Below, one piece after another: positions 603-38,723 of a stretch of DNA of 64,000 bases. The number at the start of each line of letters is the position of its first letter. The stretch's first letter is position 1. The notes beneath the pieces are model-generated. The model ran no database searches, was not told the origin of the DNA, and saw only the letters and a list, made by a program, of their open reading frames with translations. Source of the stretch: Ancylomarina salipaludis. GTDB lineage: Bacteria; Bacteroidota; Bacteroidia; Bacteroidales; Marinifilaceae. Where the stretch lies: assembly GCF_004122035.1 (NCBI RefSeq), contig NZ_SAXA01000010.1, positions 1 through 64,000 on the forward strand, written 5' to 3'. A program made the translations under genes and the position numbers.

Positions 603-1220
603 ATGAATAACTTTTACGATAAATATGAGTTTTTTCCTCTGACAATTTTAGATAGTCCACTTGAAACTGTGGAATTAGAGATAAAGGAAATATTGAAGAA
701 TTGGTGGAAAGATTCAAAAATAGAATTTGGGACTGTAGACTTAGGCAAAATAAACCCTCCTCCAATGCTTACTGCTGGAGGTGCACATTTTCCGAAATTT
801 TTGATATGGGAACCTAAAAATAATCCTAATTCGACAGCCTTCTTTGGTAATTATCAAGACGGATTAAATAGTTTGATTCACGTATGGAATCAACGCTTTG
901 GAAAGAGAGCTGTATCGGTTCGACTTTCAAACGATTCAATATGTGATTATCCTCACCACGAGATAAATGTAAAGACTACTGACAATGAAGAAAGAATCGT
1001 TCATACTCATGTGGAATCAAAATGGGAGTTTTTTCAAACTGGACCTGTTCAAGAATTTGAGGATATTGAAAATTATAAAGCAAGGAAAATTAAGGACAGA
1101 TTAAGTAATGACATTGTAAATAAATATTTAACTAAACTTGGATTCGAAATTAGGGAAGAAGATTTTTATAAATCTAACCAAGAAGGTATTTATTTTGAGA
1201 GATTGTCATGGAACAAATAA
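603..1220 (+). CDS. Hypothetical protein, single-gene cassette-like
   Basis: A 205-residue soluble protein without signal peptide or membrane segment. I do not recognise the family. It is acidic and rich in aromatic residues (motifs KFLIWEPKNNPN, SLIHVWNQRFGKRAV, HHEINVKTTDNEE), a style seen in small accessory and immunity-like proteins, but that is only an impression. The first ATG after a stop was taken. Just 11 bases after its stop begins a long imperfect palindrome (1231-1368), so gene plus palindrome form one unit. Base composition is AT-rich like the rest of the accessory region. No function is proposed. Confidence 0.6.
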   Translation: MNNFYDKYEFFPLTILDSPLETVELEIKEILKNWWKDSKIEFGTVDLGKINPPPMLTAGGAHFPKFLIWEPKNNPNSTAFFGNYQDGLNSLIHVWNQRFGKRAVSVRLSNDSICDYPHHEINVKTTDNEERIVHTHVESKWEFFQTGPVQEFEDIENYKARKIKDRLSNDIVNKYLTKLGFEIREEDFYKSNQEGIYFERLSWNK

Positions 1221-1230
1221 AAAACACGAA

Positions 1231-1368
1231 CGCACAACAATGTGTATAGCGCATAAGGGTTTCAGAGATTTTCGAGTGGTATCACCCGCATCAAGTTTGG
1301 GTGGTAACTTGATAAGTTTGAAGCCCGCAATCCCTTACGACACCATACACTCACCGTTAGCTGCAAGT
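1231..1368. repeat. Long palindromic AAC...CGTT repeat, copy E1
   Basis: Begins CGCACAACAATGTGTAT and ends CACCGTTAGCTGCAAGT. The arms pair: GTGTATAGCGCATAAGGG on the left against CCCTTACGACACCATACAC on the right. The middle holds CTTGATAAGTTTGAAGC, shared with the copy at 4804-4932. The right end CCGTTAGCTGCAAGT is identical to that of the copy at 38558-38676. The layout (AAC on the left, CGTT on the right, long imperfect stem) recalls integron attC sites, but no integrase is present in the window. From here to 1614 there is no convincing gene: a 42-codon TTG-started frame (1410-1538) runs into another repeat. Confidence 0.7.
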
Positions 1369-1527: not shown

Positions 1528-1578
1528 CACATTTGTAAATCGCACAAGCCAACACACAAACCAAAATTTGCAAAAGAG
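1528..1578. repeat. 50-bp dispersed repeat, copy 1
   Basis: CACATTTG, CACAAGCCAAC and CAAAAGAG occur in the same order and nearly the same spacing at 4721-4770. The two copies flank the three-gene operon 1615-4703 on both sides, as direct repeats. Confidence 0.65.
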
Positions 1579-1614: not shown

Positions 1615-2520
1615 ATGGGAGAATATTCAAAACGTATAGGCGAAGTTGGAGAAGCAGTCGTTACTGAGTTTCTTAGCCTTGTTGGATGGGACAATCCAAT
1701 GCAAAATGATGATATTGCAAGTATTGATACCGAGTTTCGTAAACGAACCAATGGAATCGATGGTTACTATCACTACATTAACCCGATGGTCAGTAATACG
1801 ATTGAGAATGTTCTCTATTCTGTGAAATATAGTAAAGACCCATATCCTTTATCAAAAATAACAACTCAATTTAAAGAACGCTACTATGAATTAGCTAAAG
1901 CAATTGAGTCGTTTAAGAAATCTACATTGAAACAGCAAACTATTGAAATGTATGAAGAAATAGAAAACCATTTTGATAGAGGAATACTTTTTTGGTTGAA
2001 TAATTCTAACCAAGGTGAGAATGATTTAATTAGTAGATTAAGTAGAGTTGAAGTAAATTCTGGAGTTGAACATGATGGTATTATTTTAGTAGATAATAAA
2101 AGAGTTGAATTTATTTATGATTCAATCTGTTTCACATTACTTAAATATCGAGATTATGATATTGAGTTCCTATATTTCTCAAATGGTTTAAATAATGATG
2201 AGAGGAATGCACGTAATGGTAAAATAATGCCAGTTCAATATATTAACTCAAGTGTTATTCCTATCAGAGTAAATAGAGGCAGCGAAACAACAGTTTTGCT
2301 ATTTACCATAGATTATTTCAGTAAAGAAGACTTGATGAAATATATGGGTATTGCAAAAAATATAGGCTGTAATTGTCAGGGTGCAACTCTAATTTGTTTT
2401 CCTGATTATATAGAAACAGAACATTTACCAACTGTAAATGTAGTAAAGCGAATTTTTAATGATGATTCCTTTACAGCTAACTTAACTATAGCCAATTATA
2501 ATAACCCTTTGTTGAAATAA
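1615..2520 (+). CDS. PD-(D/E)XK-type nuclease-like protein, resembles GapS4a
   Basis: A 301-residue protein whose N-terminus fits a PD-(D/E)XK-type nuclease core: Glu13 in the helix GEVGEAVVTEF, Asp49 in GIDGYY, then SVKYS with Lys71 about 20 residues later. The acidic residue that usually stands two before the lysine is Ser69, so the site is non-canonical. The opening MGEYSKRIGEVGE and the GID...SVKYSKDPYP pattern resemble, from memory, the GapS4a family of the two-gene GAPS4 anti-phage system; this match is unverified. It is the first gene of a tight operon: the next ATG comes three bases after its stop. Function inferred: DNA-targeting effector of a defence system. Alternative: an orphan restriction-like nuclease. 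Confidence 0.65.
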   Translation: MGEYSKRIGEVGEAVVTEFLSLVGWDNPMQNDDIASIDTEFRKRTNGIDGYYHYINPMVSNTIENVLYSVKYSKDPYPLSKITTQFKERYYELAKAIESFKKSTLKQQTIEMYEEIENHFDRGILFWLNNSNQGENDLISRLSRVEVNSGVEHDGIILVDNKRVEFIYDSICFTLLKYRDYDIEFLYFSNGLNNDERNARNGKIMPVQYINSSVIPIRVNRGSETTVLLFTIDYFSKEDLMKYMGIAKNIGCNCQGATLICFPDYIETEHLPTVNVVKRIFNDDSFTANLTIANYNNPLLK

Positions 2521-2523
2521 ATT

Positions 2524-3657
2524 ATGGAAAAACTAGATGTAAATAAACATATCCCTTTTGGTTTAACTCTTCAAGATGTTTTAAATCATCCATCAATTAC
2601 AGTTTCTAAGTTACGTAGTTTGCTTAGACAAAAAGGTGTTTTTTTAGAAGATTATTCACCTAATAATTCTTATCCTCTACTTTTATCAATGTTACTTTCA
2701 CCTTTTGAATTTGAGTTTATTAAGGAGAATATTAGAGGGAAAGAAAAGACACAAAAAATAACATCCCGTCCTCTAGCATGGCACAACAAGGAGAACCTAA
2801 TTCAAGTTGTTCCTGACAAGATTGATTTAAAAGAAATTCTAAGAGAAGCAGGTTCGCGCCATAAAATAATCTCTCAATCTAATTTTGCACCTGTGGATCA
2901 TAATCCTAATAAGGTTCGCATGCAGTTCAAGTGTAGAACTAATAATTACAACTCTGGTTGGTATCGTACAACGAATGAATATGAAGGTGAAATTGTTATT
3001 GAGAAGGTTCAAGATGATGATAAAACATATTTGCGGATGATTTATACGTCTCCTGAAACTCAGAATATTGCAGATTTAGGAGTAAAATATCTTGCTAAAG
3101 TGTTTAAAGAAAAAAAATATACCAAGCCAAACACAGAAGTTGAACGTATTTTATATAATAGTTTCAATAATGAGGAGCGTATAAGTTTCTTTTTGAGTTT
3201 AACTGACAGCTCTGACATATTTGATTTTCAACGAGCAACTGATTTAGATATTGCTCCAGATAGGTCTAAGGAAATGCCTGCAGAAGTGAATAAGCTCATG
3301 ACAGGAAAGGTAAATATTTTGAGAATAAATGGTGAGAATTTACATGAGCATTATTTGATAAAAGAGAAAGACAATCATCAATATATTGAACTTGCAGGTA
3401 TTGAGGCTGTTTATAATTTTTCTTATCATGCAGCTGAAGGTAATTGTGTTGTATGGTTTGGGTTTGATGGTTATTTTAAAAAGAGGTTAACCAATATTGA
3501 ATTTTCAATTAATATTACAACGGTCAATCTTAAAAGCGAATATAGTAACGTAAGTAAAGATAAGGTTCGGTTATTCTTACTTCAAGAATTTGAGAAATTC
3601 AAAATGGAGAAATACAACTGGCTTAAATATCAAAAAATCAGTAATCAATATATCTAA
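2524..3657 (+). CDS. Unknown middle protein of a putative defence operon
   Basis: A 377-residue soluble protein that I cannot place with certainty. The N-terminal 60 residues look like a small helical domain (LQDVLNHPSITVSKLRSLLR followed by KGVFL), the remainder is mixed alpha/beta with a conserved-looking FKCRTNNYNSGWYRTTNEYE strand pair around residues 138-157. There is no membrane segment, P-loop or obvious nuclease triad. It starts three bases after the nuclease-like gene, and its TAA stop shares its last base with the next ATG (TAATG), so the three genes are almost certainly co-translated. GapS4b would be the natural candidate if the first gene is GapS4a. Confident as a gene, not as to function. 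Confidence 0.75.
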   Translation: MEKLDVNKHIPFGLTLQDVLNHPSITVSKLRSLLRQKGVFLEDYSPNNSYPLLLSMLLSPFEFEFIKENIRGKEKTQKITSRPLAWHNKENLIQVVPDKIDLKEILREAGSRHKIISQSNFAPVDHNPNKVRMQFKCRTNNYNSGWYRTTNEYEGEIVIEKVQDDDKTYLRMIYTSPETQNIADLGVKYLAKVFKEKKYTKPNTEVERILYNSFNNEERISFFLSLTDSSDIFDFQRATDLDIAPDRSKEMPAEVNKLMTGKVNILRINGENLHEHYLIKEKDNHQYIELAGIEAVYNFSYHAAEGNCVVWFGFDGYFKKRLTNIEFSINITTVNLKSEYSNVSKDKVRLFLLQEFEKFKMEKYNWLKYQKISNQYI

Positions 3658-4703
3658 TGACAAACGTAGATTATACAGAAGTAGAAATCAGAAACCTGAT
3701 AACACATCAAATTGGGAATAAGCTTAGAGATGAGAAAATATCTCTTTCTAAAGAAGAAACTAGTACTGATTTTGAAACGAAGAAACTGCTCTTGAAATAT
3801 TTCTTAATTCCATTAAAATCAGACGATGTTTATTGTTTTACTCACCCTGTAAACCTGGAAATGAATGATTTATTTCTTGTAATTAGTAATTTATTTGAAA
3901 ATCAGAATACCTTTTTGACTAGTTCACATGATATTGGTAGATTATTATATGAAGAATCCATGCATCCAAAAATTAAAGAAGGGAAATTAAATATTGTTTA
4001 TTTCTCAAATGTATTTTTAGATGACGAGGTTGTTGATGCAATTGGAATTTATAAGTCAGAAAAGGATATCCCTTTCATAAGAATGAAGGCAGGTCATTCC
4101 AAGTTTGATATTTCGCATGAGTATGGTTTTGACTTAAAAGGGATTGATAAAGGTTGTATTGTTTTTAATTCAAGTAAGGAGAAAGGCTATAAGATACTAT
4201 TGACTGATAACTCAAATAAAACAGTTGAAGCGCAATATTGGAAGGATGACTTCCTCAAAGTAACTTCAATTAGTAATGAGTACAACCAAACTAACAACTT
4301 TCTTGGTTTAACTAAGCAGTTTTTGACAAAGCAATTGACTGATGATGTTGATATCTCAAAATCAGAGCAGATTGATTTACTAAATCGTTCAGTTGAGTAT
4401 TTTAAAACAAATGAATCATTTATCAAAGAGGATTTTGAAGAAACTGTATTAGGGAATAATGACATTATTGAATCATTTAGAAATTTTGATGAAGGATATA
4501 GAGAAAAGCATGATATTCAATTATCGGACAACTTTAATATCTCACCAAAAGCCGTAAAGAAACAGGCTAGAGCATTTAAGCGTGTTTTAAAACTCGATGA
4601 AAACTTCGATATATATATAAAAGGGAATAAAGAGTTGATTGAAAAGGGAATTGACGAAAATGGCAGGAAATATTATAAAATTTACTACAATGAAGAGAAA
4701 TAA
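3657..4703 (+). CDS. Nucleoid-associated protein, NdpA/YejK-like
   Basis: A 348-residue protein with the run of motifs of the Bacteroidota nucleoid-associated (37 kDa NdpA/YejK-like) family: NKLRDEKISLSKEE near the N-terminus, YEESMHPKIKEGKLNIVYF, DKGCIVFN, EAQYWKDDFL, LLNRSVEYFK and, at the C-terminus, FDIYIKGNKELIEKGIDE followed by KYYKIYY. Such proteins bind DNA; a copy is normally a solitary housekeeping gene. Here it is the third gene of an operon with a nuclease-like protein, overlapping the upstream stop by one base, so it is probably a specialised paralogue that loads on or senses DNA for the system. Family call fairly sure; the role in defence is inference. Confidence 0.8.
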   Translation: MTNVDYTEVEIRNLITHQIGNKLRDEKISLSKEETSTDFETKKLLLKYFLIPLKSDDVYCFTHPVNLEMNDLFLVISNLFENQNTFLTSSHDIGRLLYEESMHPKIKEGKLNIVYFSNVFLDDEVVDAIGIYKSEKDIPFIRMKAGHSKFDISHEYGFDLKGIDKGCIVFNSSKEKGYKILLTDNSNKTVEAQYWKDDFLKVTSISNEYNQTNNFLGLTKQFLTKQLTDDVDISKSEQIDLLNRSVEYFKTNESFIKEDFEETVLGNNDIIESFRNFDEGYREKHDIQLSDNFNISPKAVKKQARAFKRVLKLDENFDIYIKGNKELIEKGIDENGRKYYKIYYNEEK

Positions 4704-4720: not shown

Positions 4721-4770
4721 CACATTTGAAATTCACACAAGCCAACTCACTTCCAAAAATTACAAAAGAG
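4721..4770. repeat. 50-bp dispersed repeat, copy 2
   Basis: Second copy of the CACATTTG...CACAAGCCAAC...CAAAAGAG repeat seen at 1528-1578. It starts 17 bases after the operon stop and is followed by palindrome E3. Confidence 0.65.
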
Positions 4771-5146: not shown

Positions 5147-5153
5147 AATTCTA

Positions 5154-5213
5154 AGCTGGTGCGCGATTGCATCGCGTTCCCCATTTGAACGGTGTGACGG
5201 TTTTATAGGAAAG
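5154..5213. repeat. 60-bp repeat starting GTGCG, copy 1 (intron relic?)
   Basis: AGCTGGTGCGCGATTGCATC and CCCCATTTGAAC and TAGGAAAG recur in the same order at 6967-7026. GTGCG at 5159-5163 fits the GTGYG 5' end of group II introns, and the second copy runs on into a group II domain V-like sequence. Here the similarity stops after GGAAAG. The segment can also fold on itself: CGATTGCATCGCGTTCC pairs with GGAAAGTGCAACGCAATCG (ending 5224). Confidence 0.55.
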
Positions 5214-6139: not shown

Positions 6140-6964
6140 CGTTGCACAACTCCCTGATATTGCCACAAAAGATAAGCATTTAGAAAATTAGCGTGAATTA
6201 GGGTCTGCCTTGTTTTATATGGAAAAATTTGGAGGAAAATATCGAATAGAATCCAACCGGGCTAAATTTTGGGATTATTCATCACCAGCCGATTATTTTA
6301 TAACGATCTGCGTTTCGGGTCGTGCATGTATACTGGGTGATATCATTGATGGTGAAATGATTTTGTCAGAATATGGTAAAATCGTCGAACGAGAAATACA
6401 AAAAATACCTGAATACCATAAACGTGTCATAATGAATGTCTGGACAGTTATGCCCAATCATATCCATCTGCTTGTTTCCCTGGGCGATTATGCTTTCGAT
6501 AATGGGCTATCAACGATTGATAATGATACCGCCATCGTAAATGATACCGTTAACACCGTAAAGAAAATTCATGAATTTTCTCTGCAGGCATCATCACCCC
6601 TATCAGAACAAGACGGGTGGATCAACCCTAATGATCAACCTGATATCAACAACATAAAACAATACCGTAAAGAACGCAGGAGAATGCTAATCCCTAAAAT
6701 ATTGGGTAAATTCAAACAACAAACATCAAAACAGATTAATTGTCTGCGTCATGTATCGGGCATTAAAAATTGGCAATCCGATTATCATGACCACATCATC
6801 CGCAATGATGAGGAATATCAACGCATCGAGGCCTATATTATCAACAATCCTAAAAATTGGAAGGTCGATAAATTCAAGGGCTAAAATAATTGGATGAATA
6901 AACGGTTAGCTCAAACCTCTTAGAGGCGAATGCTTGCAAAGACTTTAGTCCATTAAGTCAATTC
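6140..6964 (+). mobile_element. RAYT unit, copy 1 (intact)
   Basis: Nearly the same sequence as 9760-10558. The two copies start to match at CGTTGCACAACTCCCT, run through a 5' flank containing TTAGCGTGAATTAGGGTC, the transposase gene, and a 3' flank GAATGCTTGCAAAGACTTTA, and stop matching after CAATTC. The shared borders define a unit of about 0.8 kb. It sits against the 60-bp intron-like repeat on its right. Confidence 0.7.
6219..6884 (+). CDS. REP-associated tyrosine transposase (Y1/IS200-like)
   Basis: A 221-residue single-strand DNA transposase of the RAYT class. The HUH motif is in VMPNHIHLLV (about residues 85-94), the N-terminus has the usual FITICVSGR strand and the C-terminus the typical NWQSDYHDHIIRNDEEYQRI followed by YIINNPKNW. 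RAYTs process REP palindromes and are usually domesticated single-copy genes. The ATG at 6219 was chosen over the TTG at 6210 because the second copy starts at the equivalent ATG. It is longer than copy 2 by a 27-bp in-frame segment lying in a short GATACCGT-type microrepeat. Confidence 0.9.
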   Translation: MEKFGGKYRIESNRAKFWDYSSPADYFITICVSGRACILGDIIDGEMILSEYGKIVEREIQKIPEYHKRVIMNVWTVMPNHIHLLVSLGDYAFDNGLSTIDNDTAIVNDTVNTVKKIHEFSLQASSPLSEQDGWINPNDQPDINNIKQYRKERRRMLIPKILGKFKQQTSKQINCLRHVSGIKNWQSDYHDHIIRNDEEYQRIEAYIINNPKNWKVDKFKG

Positions 6965-6966
6965 CC

Positions 6967-7223
6967 AGCTGGTGCGCGATTGCATCGCATTCCCCATTTG
7001 AACTGTGTAGCGATTTGGTAGGAAAGAAGGCTACAATTTGCCAACTTGAAAGAGGATGAGCATTTATTAGTAGATAAAATTAGAGGAGCCGTATGATGAG
7101 CATTACGAAGTAATCATGAATACCATTTTATAAAATACTCGTGAATAGACTATCACGTACGGTTCTGTGAGAGGCTTAGGGTGAATTGAAAATCGACGAA
7201 GTCATACTCACTTTGCCTACTCG
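6967..7223 (+). mobile_element. Group II intron relic, ORF-less
   Basis: It opens with the second copy of the 60-bp GTGCG repeat (6967-7026). At 7086 GAGCCGTAT begins a domain V-like hairpin whose other strand is ACGTACGGTTC ending at 7165, followed by TGTGAGAGGCTTAGGGTGAA and CCTACTCG (7216-7223), all typical of a bacterial group II intron 3' end. Domain V is normally 34 nt; here it spans 80 nt because about 46 nt replace the apical loop. There is no reverse transcriptase, and the left part is far shorter than a full domain I-III. It is therefore a deleted, presumably inactive intron. The remaining stretch to 7368 holds no gene. Confidence 0.6.
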
Positions 7224-7368
7224 ATGCGCTATCTGTTACCACAAATTATAAAAGCGAGAAAAACATGAAATACATTTATTGTGGATTTAAAAAATACCAC
7301 ATAATCACAAACTTTTGTAACTTGAATGTAATTCACTAAAATTAAATATTAAGAACTTATATAAAGTT

Positions 7369-37333: not shown

Positions 37334-38557
37334 ATGATAGAAATAGAAAAATTACAAGACCTTGTTATCAATGAAAGTCAAAGACTTGAAAAGCTAAAGC
37401 TATTTTTAAGTCAACCAAACTATCTAGAAATACTGGGTATTAGTCATAGAGAATTACAGCATTCAAATTTTTTAGCGTGGATGATGAATTCAAGGTCATC
37501 TCATGATATTGGTAATTATTTCTTAAAGAGTTTCATAAATCTTTTGCCCTTTTCACCCGAAGATAAGATTAGAATAAACCTATCAAATCTAGAAGGCACA
37601 AAAATACTTAGAGAATACAATGACATTGATTTACTTATTGTGAATGACAGTTTGAAATTTTCAATATGTATTGAAAACAAGATTAAAGCGGGTAAATCTG
37701 GCGATAATCAACTTCTTAAATATTATGAAATTGTTGAAAATATCTGGAGTGATAAGGAGCACAGAAATTACTATGTGTATTTAACTCCATTTCCGAGAAC
37801 ATTGACAGAAAAAGAACTTGAAATTGAATATATCAATCTGACTTATCAATCAATTCTGGAGATACTTGAAGATACAGTAAAAAGTAAACAACCGTCAGAA
37901 GAAACAGCACCTTTGATTGATAATTATATCAATAACCTGAAGAAGAACATTATGGGAATAAGTAAAGAGGCAAAACTCGCACAAGAAATATATAGAAAGC
38001 ACAAATCTGCAATTGATTTTATTGTGAATAATAAACCAAGCCTATATAGTAAAGAGTTGTTCAGACAAATAAATGAGTTTTTTATTCAACATGAGCAATA
38101 TGAAAATCTAACACCTAAAGACAAAAATATTATTAGAATCTTGCCAGTAAATACAGTGCCATATTTTAATTATAAAACAAATTCATGGGGAGAAACAAAG
38201 AGTTCTTTTGCATTAGAAATATTTTGTGAACAAGAAAAAATATGGATGAAATTCTGTTTCGGAGCTATTAATATAAAAAGTGAAAATGAAAGATTAAGAT
38301 TTCAAAGTATTAAAGATGAAATGTTTTCTTTGATGAAAGAGTTCTCATCAATAAGCAGTAAGATAGTAAGACGTTCAAAATCATCTTCAGGTTATCCATC
38401 TGTTGCAAATTTTGATATAATAAGATTAAATGATAAGGTATTATTAGAAACTGATGATGTGTTTTCAGCCTTTAAGATTAAATTCCAGAAGTTTGAAGAA
38501 AATACGCTAAACAAATGGACAGAAGAAGTGGTAAATAAAATATCGAAAGCCCAATAA
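37334..38557 (+). CDS. PD-(D/E)XK nuclease-superfamily protein
   Basis: A 407-residue protein of the PD-(D/E)XK group often found in defence islands. The opening EILGISHRELQHSNFLAWMM (helix with Glu40) and the catalytic REYNDIDLLIV (Asp99) then SICIENKIKAG (Glu114-x-Lys116) followed by DNQLLKYY make a complete active site. The C-terminal 230 residues are unknown, with strand-rich parts, perhaps a target sensor. The TTG at 37304 would lie inside the shared leader, so the ATG at 37334 was chosen. AT-rich and solitary between core genes: a single-gene insertion. Confidence 0.8.
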   Translation: MIEIEKLQDLVINESQRLEKLKLFLSQPNYLEILGISHRELQHSNFLAWMMNSRSSHDIGNYFLKSFINLLPFSPEDKIRINLSNLEGTKILREYNDIDLLIVNDSLKFSICIENKIKAGKSGDNQLLKYYEIVENIWSDKEHRNYYVYLTPFPRTLTEKELEIEYINLTYQSILEILEDTVKSKQPSEETAPLIDNYINNLKKNIMGISKEAKLAQEIYRKHKSAIDFIVNNKPSLYSKELFRQINEFFIQHEQYENLTPKDKNIIRILPVNTVPYFNYKTNSWGETKSSFALEIFCEQEKIWMKFCFGAINIKSENERLRFQSIKDEMFSLMKEFSSISSKIVRRSKSSSGYPSVANFDIIRLNDKVLLETDDVFSAFKIKFQKFEENTLNKWTEEVVNKISKAQ

Positions 38558-38676
38558 TATGTATAGTGTATTAGGGTTTTATAGGCGTAGTAACCCGCTC
38601 TAAAATTTGCTATAACTTAACAGGTAAGAAGCCCGCAATCCCTTACTAACCATACCGCCATCCGTTAGCTGCAAGT
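38558..38676. repeat. Palindromic repeat ending CCGTTAGCTGCAAGT, copy E2
   Basis: It starts right after the nuclease stop. Left arm TATGTATAGTGTATTAGGG, right arm CCCTTACTAACCATACC; the block GAAGCCCGCAATCCCTTAC and the end CCGTTAGCTGCAAGT are nearly the same as in E1 (1231-1368), 37 kb away. Confidence 0.7.
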
Positions 38677-38723
38677 GGGTACGGTCAAGGAACATCGTTG
38701 ACACCTAAGTGTCAAATGAGATA

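What the first reader, a model, noticed from the sequence alone, without database searches (positions are those of the whole stretch)
1615..4703. Three-gene operon: nuclease-like, unknown and nucleoid-associated protein
Gene 1 has a PD-(D/E)XK-like core (Glu13, Asp49, Lys71 in SVKYS) resembling GapS4a. Gene 2 is an unknown 377-residue protein three bases later. Gene 3, overlapping by one base (TAATG), is an NdpA/YejK-like nucleoid-associated protein. A nucleoid-associated protein co-translated with a nuclease-like protein would go beyond a two-gene GAPS4 and may be a distinct anti-phage or anti-plasmid system. The operon sits in an accessory, repeat-flanked region. Gene function as a set is inference.
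Basis: partly seen in the sequence, partly recalled or inferred. Interest (0 to 1): 0.8.

Follow-up and report, generated by a model that had tools for sequence, protein, structure and literature searches.

The report
GAPS4 defence operon with NA37 protein
Two genes of a known bacterial anti-phage system, GAPS4, overlap a third gene for a YejK-type DNA-binding protein, and the same trio recurs in many members of one bacterial phylum, which suggests that this common but poorly understood protein can work in immunity.

Summary
The operon is real. Gene 1 (1615-2520) is GapS4a and gene 2 (2524-3657) GapS4b, both over NCBIfam cut-offs, so gene 2 is not unknown. Gene 3 (3657-4703) is NA37/YejK. This is GAPS4 with a third component.

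Of 33 GapS4 loci found, NA37 directly follows GapS4b in 13 (10 distinct sequences, window included, all Bacteroidota), is absent in 17, and cannot be judged in 3 at contig ends. Presence clusters on the GapS4 tree (2 changes; shuffled mean 7.6). On the fullest tree the NA37 genes are not one clade and lie beside solo copies, so recruitment was probably repeated. Close pairs show purifying selection on all three genes. Three fused relatives lack GapS4a's lysine 71; two of them carry NA37, the third ends at a contig edge. NA37 also ends one Lamassu-like operon and stands beside RelA/SpoT genes in three phyla.

Best guess, inferred: NA37 is the DNA-reading trigger or targeting subunit of GapS4ab. 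One paper reports a validated YejK-domain defence system; I found no held GAPS4 paper. New variant.

The parts
1615..2520 (+). gapS4a: GapS4a family protein, 301 aa, PD-(D/E)XK-like core E13, D49, S69-x-K71
   Evidence: NCBIfam NF047933, E 8.3e-99, 330.6 bits over cut-off 270; E13, D49, K71 conserved in 24 of 24 unfused rows
2524..3657 (+). gapS4b: GapS4b family protein, 377 aa
   Evidence: NCBIfam NF047934, E 7.4e-115, 383.5 bits over cut-off 300; AlphaFold2 model pLDDT 79.8, no PDB match at E <= 0.001
3657..4703 (+). third gene: NA37/YejK-type nucleoid-associated protein, 348 aa, start overlaps the gapS4b stop by one base
   Evidence: Pfam PF04245, E 4.7e-25, 89.1 bits over cut-off 24.6; AlphaFold2 model pLDDT 86.4; the one PDB match at E <= 0.001 is E. 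coli YejK 9be2, E 2.4e-10
1528..1568 (+). left copy of a 41-nt direct repeat upstream of gapS4a
   Evidence: family D3; 80% identical to 4721-4761
4721..4761 (+). right copy of the 41-nt direct repeat, after the NA37 gene
   Evidence: family D3
1229..1358 (+). intergenic repeat of about 130 nt with AAC and GTT near its ends (attC-like in outline only)
   Evidence: copies at 85-86% on contigs C22 and C18, 73% at 38533-38677; single-strand folding no better than shuffles

Best explanation
A GAPS4 anti-phage system with a third NA37/YejK subunit whose gene overlaps gapS4b. Shown here: the identity of the three genes, their recurrent order in Bacteroidota, purifying selection on all three in close pairs, and NA37 in two of the three fused relatives whose GapS4a core is altered. 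Inferred: GapS4a is the nuclease and GapS4b its scaffold or regulator; NA37 binds DNA (and, like E. coli YejK, possibly type II topoisomerases) and acts as the DNA-reading trigger or targeting factor, directing or releasing GapS4ab on DNA whose topology or packing differs from the host nucleoid, such as replicating phage or plasmid DNA.
For: GapS4a and GapS4b over curated cut-offs; NA37 by Pfam and fold. NA37 follows GapS4b in 13 loci (10 distinct, window included), -4 to +25 nt apart. Its presence clusters on the GapS4 tree: 2 changes, shuffled mean 7.6, 0 of 500 shuffles as low. dN/dS for the closest pair (L065/L066): GapS4a 0.008, GapS4b 0.038, NA37 0.081. Two fused forms have an N-terminus like PADLOC's CBASS endonuclease effector (E 2.9e-14 and 1.1e-16; the third, L110, is 69% identical to L053) and all three lack K71, yet L053 and L110 are followed by NA37, so NA37 does not depend on the GapS4a active site. 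In a Klebsiella plasmid and an E. coli chromosome NA37 sits in a three-gene run with a DUF4231 protein (probably membrane-bound) and RelA/SpoT, with no nuclease among the three. YejK is cited as binding DNA and Topo IV (PMC8934667, passages) and as acting on gyrase and Topo IV (PMC9927451, passages). Chosen neighbours of the trio in 4 of the 10 sequences match known defence components: retron III-A RT and PRTase (L053), CBASS cyclase and E1-E2 (L069), PD-Lambda-3_B (L062), TmtA (L065).
Against: No functional assay. 17 of 30 determinable GapS4 loci have no NA37, so it cannot be essential to GAPS4 in general. The window's NA37 and GapS4ab have different histories (AU p 0.008), which argues against tight co-evolution at an interface. 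Solo NA37 genes at 60-62% identity exist in the same order in genomes with no GapS4b match listed (G740, G802). In Marinifilum fragile NA37 is intact while gapS4a and gapS4b look broken (sequencing errors not excluded), which fits a separate or protective role at least as well. The upstream neighbour at 603-1220 in the window matches no defence model. In L140 the NA37-RelA/SpoT run does stand behind a restriction gene. No complex was modelled.
Confidence: 0.45

Rival explanations
1. NA37 is the protective subunit: it coats or marks host DNA, or holds GapS4ab inactive, so that the nuclease spares the chromosome.
For: Nuclease, partner and DNA-binding protein in overlapping or nearly overlapping genes. 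In Marinifilum fragile NA37 stays intact although gapS4a and gapS4b look broken. NA37 is a nucleoid protein by family name.
Against: 17 GapS4ab loci do without it. NA37 also stands with DUF4231 and RelA/SpoT genes, a set with no recognised nuclease. The own genome has another NA37 at 36% identity.
Confidence: 0.2
2. NA37 is a decoy or guard: phages carry NA37 or attack host NA37/topoisomerase functions, and the operon copy senses that interference and releases GapS4ab.
For: 23 phage records encode NA37 relatives (27-31% identity in the 20 rows listed), among them Polaribacter and Tenacibaculum phages. Operon NA37s lie close to solo copies. NA37 has the highest dN of the three genes in 3 of 3 pairs among L062, L065 and L066.
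Against: Phage NA37s are distant from the operon NA37s: branch of 1.5. No link between those phages and GAPS4 hosts was looked for or seen.
Confidence: 0.15
3. NA37 is a regulator of the operon or of its mobile element (an anti-silencer), not part of the immune machine.
For: NdpA2 on ICE PAPI-1 relieves MvaT repression of transfer genes (PMC8565334, passages). The L062 and L065 loci lie among conjugation-like genes (by eye).
Against: In L053, L109 and L110 no conjugation genes are in view (by eye, stretches of 8.5-16 kb), and NA37 directly follows gapS4b in 13 of 13.
Confidence: 0.1
4. NA37 is a passenger gene carried along by chance.
For: NA37 is common: 75 of 395 genomes of the phylum sample (E <= 1e-10) and 144 of 393 of the order sample (E <= 1e-60).
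Against: The same order within 25 nt in 10 distinct sequences; probably more than one recruitment; dN/dS well below 1. Upstream of 104 other NA37 genes (44, 60) I saw, mostly by eye, a recognisable defence operon in two.
Confidence: 0.08

Closest known systems
GAPS4 (GapS4a + GapS4b; NCBIfam NF047933, NF047934)
   Same: Both core proteins, their order, the PD-(D/E)XK-like residues, a gap of a few bases
   Different: A third gene, NA37, overlaps gapS4b; the enterobacterial (L008, L009, L074) and Flavobacterium-type (L071-L073, L075-L078) GAPS4 loci examined lack it
YejK / NdpA / NA37 nucleoid-associated proteins (PF04245)
   Same: Near full-length Pfam match and best fold match to E. coli YejK; columns conserved among 35 NA37 proteins are kept
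   Different: Encoded in a defence operon rather than alone; the own genome has a separate NA37 at 36% identity
YejK-domain defence system of DefensePredictor (PMC13092281)
   Same: A YejK domain in a transcription unit validated against phage in E. coli (passage; section 5)
   Different: The text seen does not say which genes stand beside it; that it is the DUF4231-NA37-RelA/SpoT run is a guess
Lamassu (LmuA/LmuB/LmuC)
   Same: One locus (L139) has NA37 as last gene after LmuC- and LmuB-like genes
   Different: Three other LmuB loci have no NA37 in the 3.3-4.9 kb held; the LmuA there matches only the C-terminal part of the profile
CBASS endonuclease effector (Cap4-like; the name Cap4 is recalled)
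   Same: The first 98 residues of two fused GapS4 proteins match PADLOC's 'Effector, Endonuclease' model
   Different: The match covers the first fifth of that model only; the rest of the protein is GapS4a- and GapS4b-like

Membership tests
GAPS4 | GapS4a over the family cut-off | tested here: met
   330.6 bits, cut-off 270
GAPS4 | GapS4b over the family cut-off | tested here: met
   383.5 bits, cut-off 300
GAPS4 | The two genes adjacent, same strand | tested here: met
   3 nt apart
GAPS4 | PD-(D/E)XK-like catalytic residues intact | tested here: met
   E13, D49, K71 present; conserved in 24 of 24 unfused rows; catalysis itself not tested
GAPS4 | Protects against phage | not testable with these tools
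   no assay; anti-phage activity of GAPS4 is recalled and implied by the NCBIfam name; no paper on it was found in the library
NA37/YejK | Pfam PF04245 over its gathering score | tested here: met
   89.1 bits, cut-off 24.6, residues 15-335
NA37/YejK | YejK fold | tested here: met
   9be2, E 2.4e-10, probability 1.00; TM only 0.47-0.49 and rmsd 10.7, so the domains are placed differently
NA37/YejK | Binds DNA and topoisomerase | not testable with these tools
   reported for E. coli YejK in citing passages
GAPS4-specific NA37 clade | All GAPS4-linked NA37 form one clade | tested here: not met
   54-row tree: 4 changes, at least 3 forced by well-supported branches; on the earlier 40-row tree one clade was not rejected (p-AU 0.3)
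PADLOC-DB 2023 systems | Match to any defence model | tested here: not met
   genes 1 and 2: none at E <= 1; gene 3 only weak RmrA (E 0.007)

The most novel reading that the evidence does not exclude
NA37/YejK is a transferable DNA-state sensor module of bacterial immunity, used by mechanistically unrelated systems: the GapS4ab nuclease (probably recruited more than once), its relatives headed by a CBASS-type endonuclease domain, a Lamassu, and an alarmone-type cassette of NA37 with RelA/SpoT seen in Bacteroidota, Enterobacterales and Actinomycetota (with a DUF4231 protein in the Enterobacterales). Housekeeping YejK may read the same DNA state.
Probability: 0.3. Interest if true: 0.82.

Novelty: new variant of a known kind. 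Interest (0 to 1): 0.62.

Why it matters
YejK/NA37 is widespread, but what it does is poorly known. Finding it as a recurrent last gene of a nuclease defence operon, still present where the nuclease part has changed, and beside a quite different gene set elsewhere, gives a direct way to test its role: remove it and ask whether the immune system still fires. It also extends GAPS4 from two genes to a three-gene form that the family models used here would annotate as GAPS4 plus an unrelated 'nucleoid-associated protein'.

Tried and rejected
Tried without result: PADLOC models for genes 1 and 2; PDB sequence searches with NA37 and GapS4b (only weak matches, E 0.035 or worse) and GapS4a (none); fold search of GapS4b (nothing at E <= 0.001, weak matches only); GAPS4-type NA37 in viral contigs (0 of 498 matched stretches); GapS4b in phages (none).

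Considered and rejected: (1) That GAPS4-linked NA37 is one exclusive clade. The 38-row tree suggested it, and the only 4 genomes with two NA37 copies were GAPS4-NA37 carriers. The order-wide sample broke it: solo copies at 60-62% identity, nested placement, and genomes with two copies and no GapS4b match listed (G541, G553, G640, G713, G716). (2) An integron cassette. The flanking repeats have AAC and GTT near their ends, but folding is no better than shuffles (z 0.24, 0.22, 1.05, -0.75), no integrase passes the TIGR02249 cut-off, and that family rings in 14 of 14 controls, over the cut-off in none. (3) Weak GapS4b matches in long proteins (G699, G768, G827, G074; E 2.6e-4 to 7e-4): tblastn found no GapS4 at the two I fetched (G827, G074), so all four are left out of every count. 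(4) NA37 as a regular part of Lamassu: 1 of 4 LmuB loci, the other three seen over 3.3-4.9 kb only.

Rows dropped before counts: L001-L005, L007, L013-L021, L104, L105, L118, L119 (pieces or repeats of other loci); same contigs fetched twice (L010 = L070, L049 = L066, L050 = L062, L051 = L076, L052 = L080). Identical copies L063, L064 and L068 count as loci but not as distinct sequences. L061, L012 and L084 are left out of the NA37 proportion because the contig ends there. L070, L011 and L061 were not in the GapS4 trees (broken or cut). The 54-row NA37 tree left out the plasmid and phage rows L086-L088. The census of other NA37 genes looked upstream only (>= 80 aa within 150 nt; >= 100 aa within 60 nt) and was judged mostly by eye, so partners downstream, such as RelA/SpoT in L206, would be missed.
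Full report
What is there. Three + strand ORFs lie at 1615-2520, 2524-3657 and 3657-4703. NCBIfam names the first GapS4a (E 8.3e-99, 330.6 bits, cut-off 270) and the second GapS4b (E 7.4e-115, 383.5 bits, cut-off 300). The third is NA37 (Pfam PF04245, E 4.7e-25). PADLOC's 2023 models do not recognise genes 1 and 2. The genome (G000, 4.15 Mb, 55 contigs; window = C2:1-64000) holds one more NA37, at 36% identity, on another contig. It is in the same family as G038, whose contig C14 equals that of Marinifilum fragile JCM 15579 in length and ORFs, so the host is probably a Marinifilaceae relative (inference).

Survey of GapS4 loci. I looked for GapS4b with the family model in 144, 395 and 393 genomes (overlapping sets), for GapS4a in GTDB species contigs (20 loci, one peptide pattern) and viral contigs (5 loci), and for GapS4b in plasmids (2 records) and phages (none). 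After removal of pieces, duplicates and four weak matches there are 33 loci. NA37 directly follows GapS4b in 13: window, L062, L063, L064, L068, L065, L066, L067, L069, L070, L053, L109, L110. L062, L063, L064 and L068 share 14,903 bases at 100.0% identity, so these are 10 distinct sequences. Gaps run from -4 to +25 nt. NA37 is absent from the held stretch of 17 loci, tested with 54 NA37 queries (L008, L009, L011, L071-L083, L085). L061, L084 and L012 are cut by contig ends; the 139 nt after the fused gene of L012 hold no NA37 start. Among the 13 loci found by GapS4b rather than GapS4a, 7 have NA37, 5 lack it and 1 (L012) is cut. The NA37-positive loci are all from Bacteroidota; the loci without it include Flavobacterium, Aequorivita, Enterobacterales, plasmids, viral contigs and L011 of the window's own order. 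These counts are a sample, not a census.

Trees. On the concatenated GapS4a+b tree of 27 rows (25 with a known NA37 state), NA37 presence needs 2 changes (shuffled mean 7.6; 0 of 500 as low), and a single clade is not rejected (p-AU 0.265). On the NA37 side, 38 rows suggested one GAPS4-linked group (93/88), and 40 rows did not reject it (p-AU 0.3). When the closest solo NA37 genes of the order were added (54 rows) the 10 GAPS4-linked rows needed 4 changes, at least 3 of them forced by well-supported branches: a canonical set of seven with two solo genes (L113, L114) lying within it at weak support (86/36; the seven as one clade not rejected, p-AU 0.36), L109 beside a solo gene (99/94), and the fused pair. 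NA37 was therefore probably recruited to GAPS4 more than once, or solo copies escaped from it; the data do not decide which.

Partner exchange. The window's GapS4ab groups with the Flavobacterium/conjugative-element type (100/100; 70-75% identity), while its NA37 groups with those of Marinifilum and Maribellus (66% and 64%), whose GapS4ab are only 43-55% identical to the window's in the aligned pieces. Holding the window's NA37 with the Flavobacterium type is rejected (p-AU 0.008). In these few rows NA37 follows host taxonomy more than GapS4ab does; this is suggestive only.

Selection. For the closest pair, L065/L066, dN/dS is 0.008 (GapS4a), 0.038 (GapS4b) and 0.081 (NA37); the pairs L062/L065 and L062/L066 give 0.023-0.050, with synonymous sites already near saturation (dS 1.6-1.9). 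More distant pairs are saturated and not interpretable. NA37 is constrained, though less than its partners.

Altered nuclease part. Three proteins of 895-902 aa join an N-terminal domain to GapS4a- and GapS4b-like parts (L053, L110, L012). The first 98 residues of L053 and L012 match PADLOC's CBASS endonuclease effector (E 2.9e-14 and 1.1e-16); L110 is 69% identical to L053 over its length. Pfam gave no match for L053 and L012 and only a weak DUF7570 for the N-terminus of L053. In the GapS4a part K71 and E13 are missing in 3 of 3 and D49 in 2 of 3 (the alignment there is loose). Two of the three are followed by NA37 with a 4-nt overlap. So NA37 goes with the GapS4 scaffold, not with its active site.

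Neighbourhoods. I scanned chosen neighbours of four of the NA37-positive sequences with PADLOC: a retron III-A RT and PRTase (L053), a CBASS cyclase and E1-E2 protein (L069), PD-Lambda-3_B (L062) and a TmtA-like protein (L065). L109 stands behind Eco57I-type restriction genes. L062 and L065 lie among conjugation-like genes (by eye). The window's own upstream ORF at 603-1220 has no match over a cut-off. In Marinifilum fragile gapS4a and gapS4b look broken but NA37 is intact.

NA37 elsewhere. I looked upstream of 104 non-GAPS4 NA37 genes (44, 60), mostly by eye. In one search, 15 of 60 had a codirectional ORF of at least 100 aa within 60 nt, none of them recognisable to me as a defence gene. Two of the 44 adjoin a recognised defence operon: L139 with LmuC- and LmuB-like genes and a short LmuA C-terminal match, and L140 with a type IIG restriction gene, a second NA37 and a RelA/SpoT protein. 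The second NA37 of L140 led to two plasmids: in Klebsiella pneumoniae NZ_CP092398 a DUF4231 protein, NA37 and RelA/SpoT, in Streptomyces NZ_CP130719 NA37 and RelA/SpoT. The Klebsiella run led to E. coli chromosomes: 3 of 5,426 genomes match, two (NZ_CP091662, NZ_AP022295) over 77-78% of the query with DUF4231, NA37 and GTP pyrophosphokinase annotated, one over 15% (NZ_CP091662 viewed). That DUF4231 proteins are membrane-bound rests on weak matches to 8xMP (E 3.4e-4) and to a 2TM effector (E 0.0019) for the Klebsiella one. 23 phage records carry NA37, among them phages of Polaribacter and Tenacibaculum.

Structure. The NA37 model (pLDDT 86.4) has one PDB match at E <= 0.001, E. coli YejK 9be2 (E 2.4e-10, TM 0.47-0.49, rmsd 10.7). 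The GapS4b model (pLDDT 79.8) has none.

Mechanism. Shown: identity, order, recurrence, constraint. Inferred: GapS4a cuts DNA; GapS4b is scaffold or regulator; NA37 reads DNA. The argument for a trigger rather than a shield is that NA37 also stands with a probable membrane protein and a RelA/SpoT enzyme, where no nuclease needs restraining, and that it is found with GapS4 proteins whose nuclease core has changed. YejK is cited as binding DNA and interacting with Topo IV (PMC8934667, passages) and with gyrase and Topo IV (PMC9927451, passages); the original paper was not held.

What is in print. PMC13092281 (abstract and opening, sections 5, 7 and figure legends, one passage) reports a YejK nucleoid-associated domain among domains newly validated in defence; the text seen does not name its partners. 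Only one held paper has both 'GAPS4' and 'phage', unrelated by its title and abstract start; the listings (20 of 137; 30 of 52; 15 of 331) showed no GAPS4 defence paper either. Preprints and most subscription papers are not held. That GAPS4 was first described among gamma-mobile-trio elements and acts against phage is recalled, not seen.

Verdict. A GAPS4 core with a recurrent third component that I found in no paper: a new variant of a known kind, with a wider lead that NA37 serves several immune systems.

Noticed in passing
L140:2939-6018; L206:3527-6090; L205:4998-7182; L207:4854-7374: NA37 beside a RelA/SpoT protein in Bacteroidota, Enterobacterales and Actinomycetota, with a DUF4231 protein in Klebsiella and E. 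coli; looks like a separate defence system.
   Followed up: partly
L053:7594-10281, L110:4497-7187, L012:150-2858: Single proteins of about 900 aa joining a CBASS-endonuclease-like domain to a GapS4a part lacking lysine 71 and to GapS4b.
   Followed up: partly
L139:99-3822: Lamassu-like operon whose LmuA is only a 127-aa C-terminal piece, ending in NA37.
   Followed up: partly
L062, L063, L064, L068 (1-14903): The same 14,903 bases (100.0% identity) of a conjugative-type element carrying GAPS4-NA37 in four species records: very recent transfer or cross-contamination.
   Followed up: no
window 1229-1358, 38533-38677; own genome C22:3606-3738, C18:4-127: Intergenic repeat family of about 130 nt with AAC and GTT near its ends, attC-like in outline; folding not better than shuffles.
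   Followed up: partly
window 5147-5213 and 6960-7026: 67-nt direct repeat, 87% identical, in two other stretches near the operon.
   Followed up: no
window 7084-7225: Rfam match to a group II catalytic intron (43.7 bits, gathering 40).
   Followed up: no
L045, L126, L038 (NA37 loci): A small hydrophobic ORF of 151-180 aa, possibly a membrane protein, ends -4 to +11 nt from NA37; the Pfam test of two of them used incomplete strings and says nothing.
   Followed up: no
L087:2983-4011, L088:2989-4038: Phages of Tenacibaculum and Polaribacter encode NA37 relatives at 29-31% identity.
   Followed up: no
window 603-1220: 205-aa ORF upstream of the operon without a family match over cut-off in Pfam, PADLOC or NCBIfam.
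   Followed up: no
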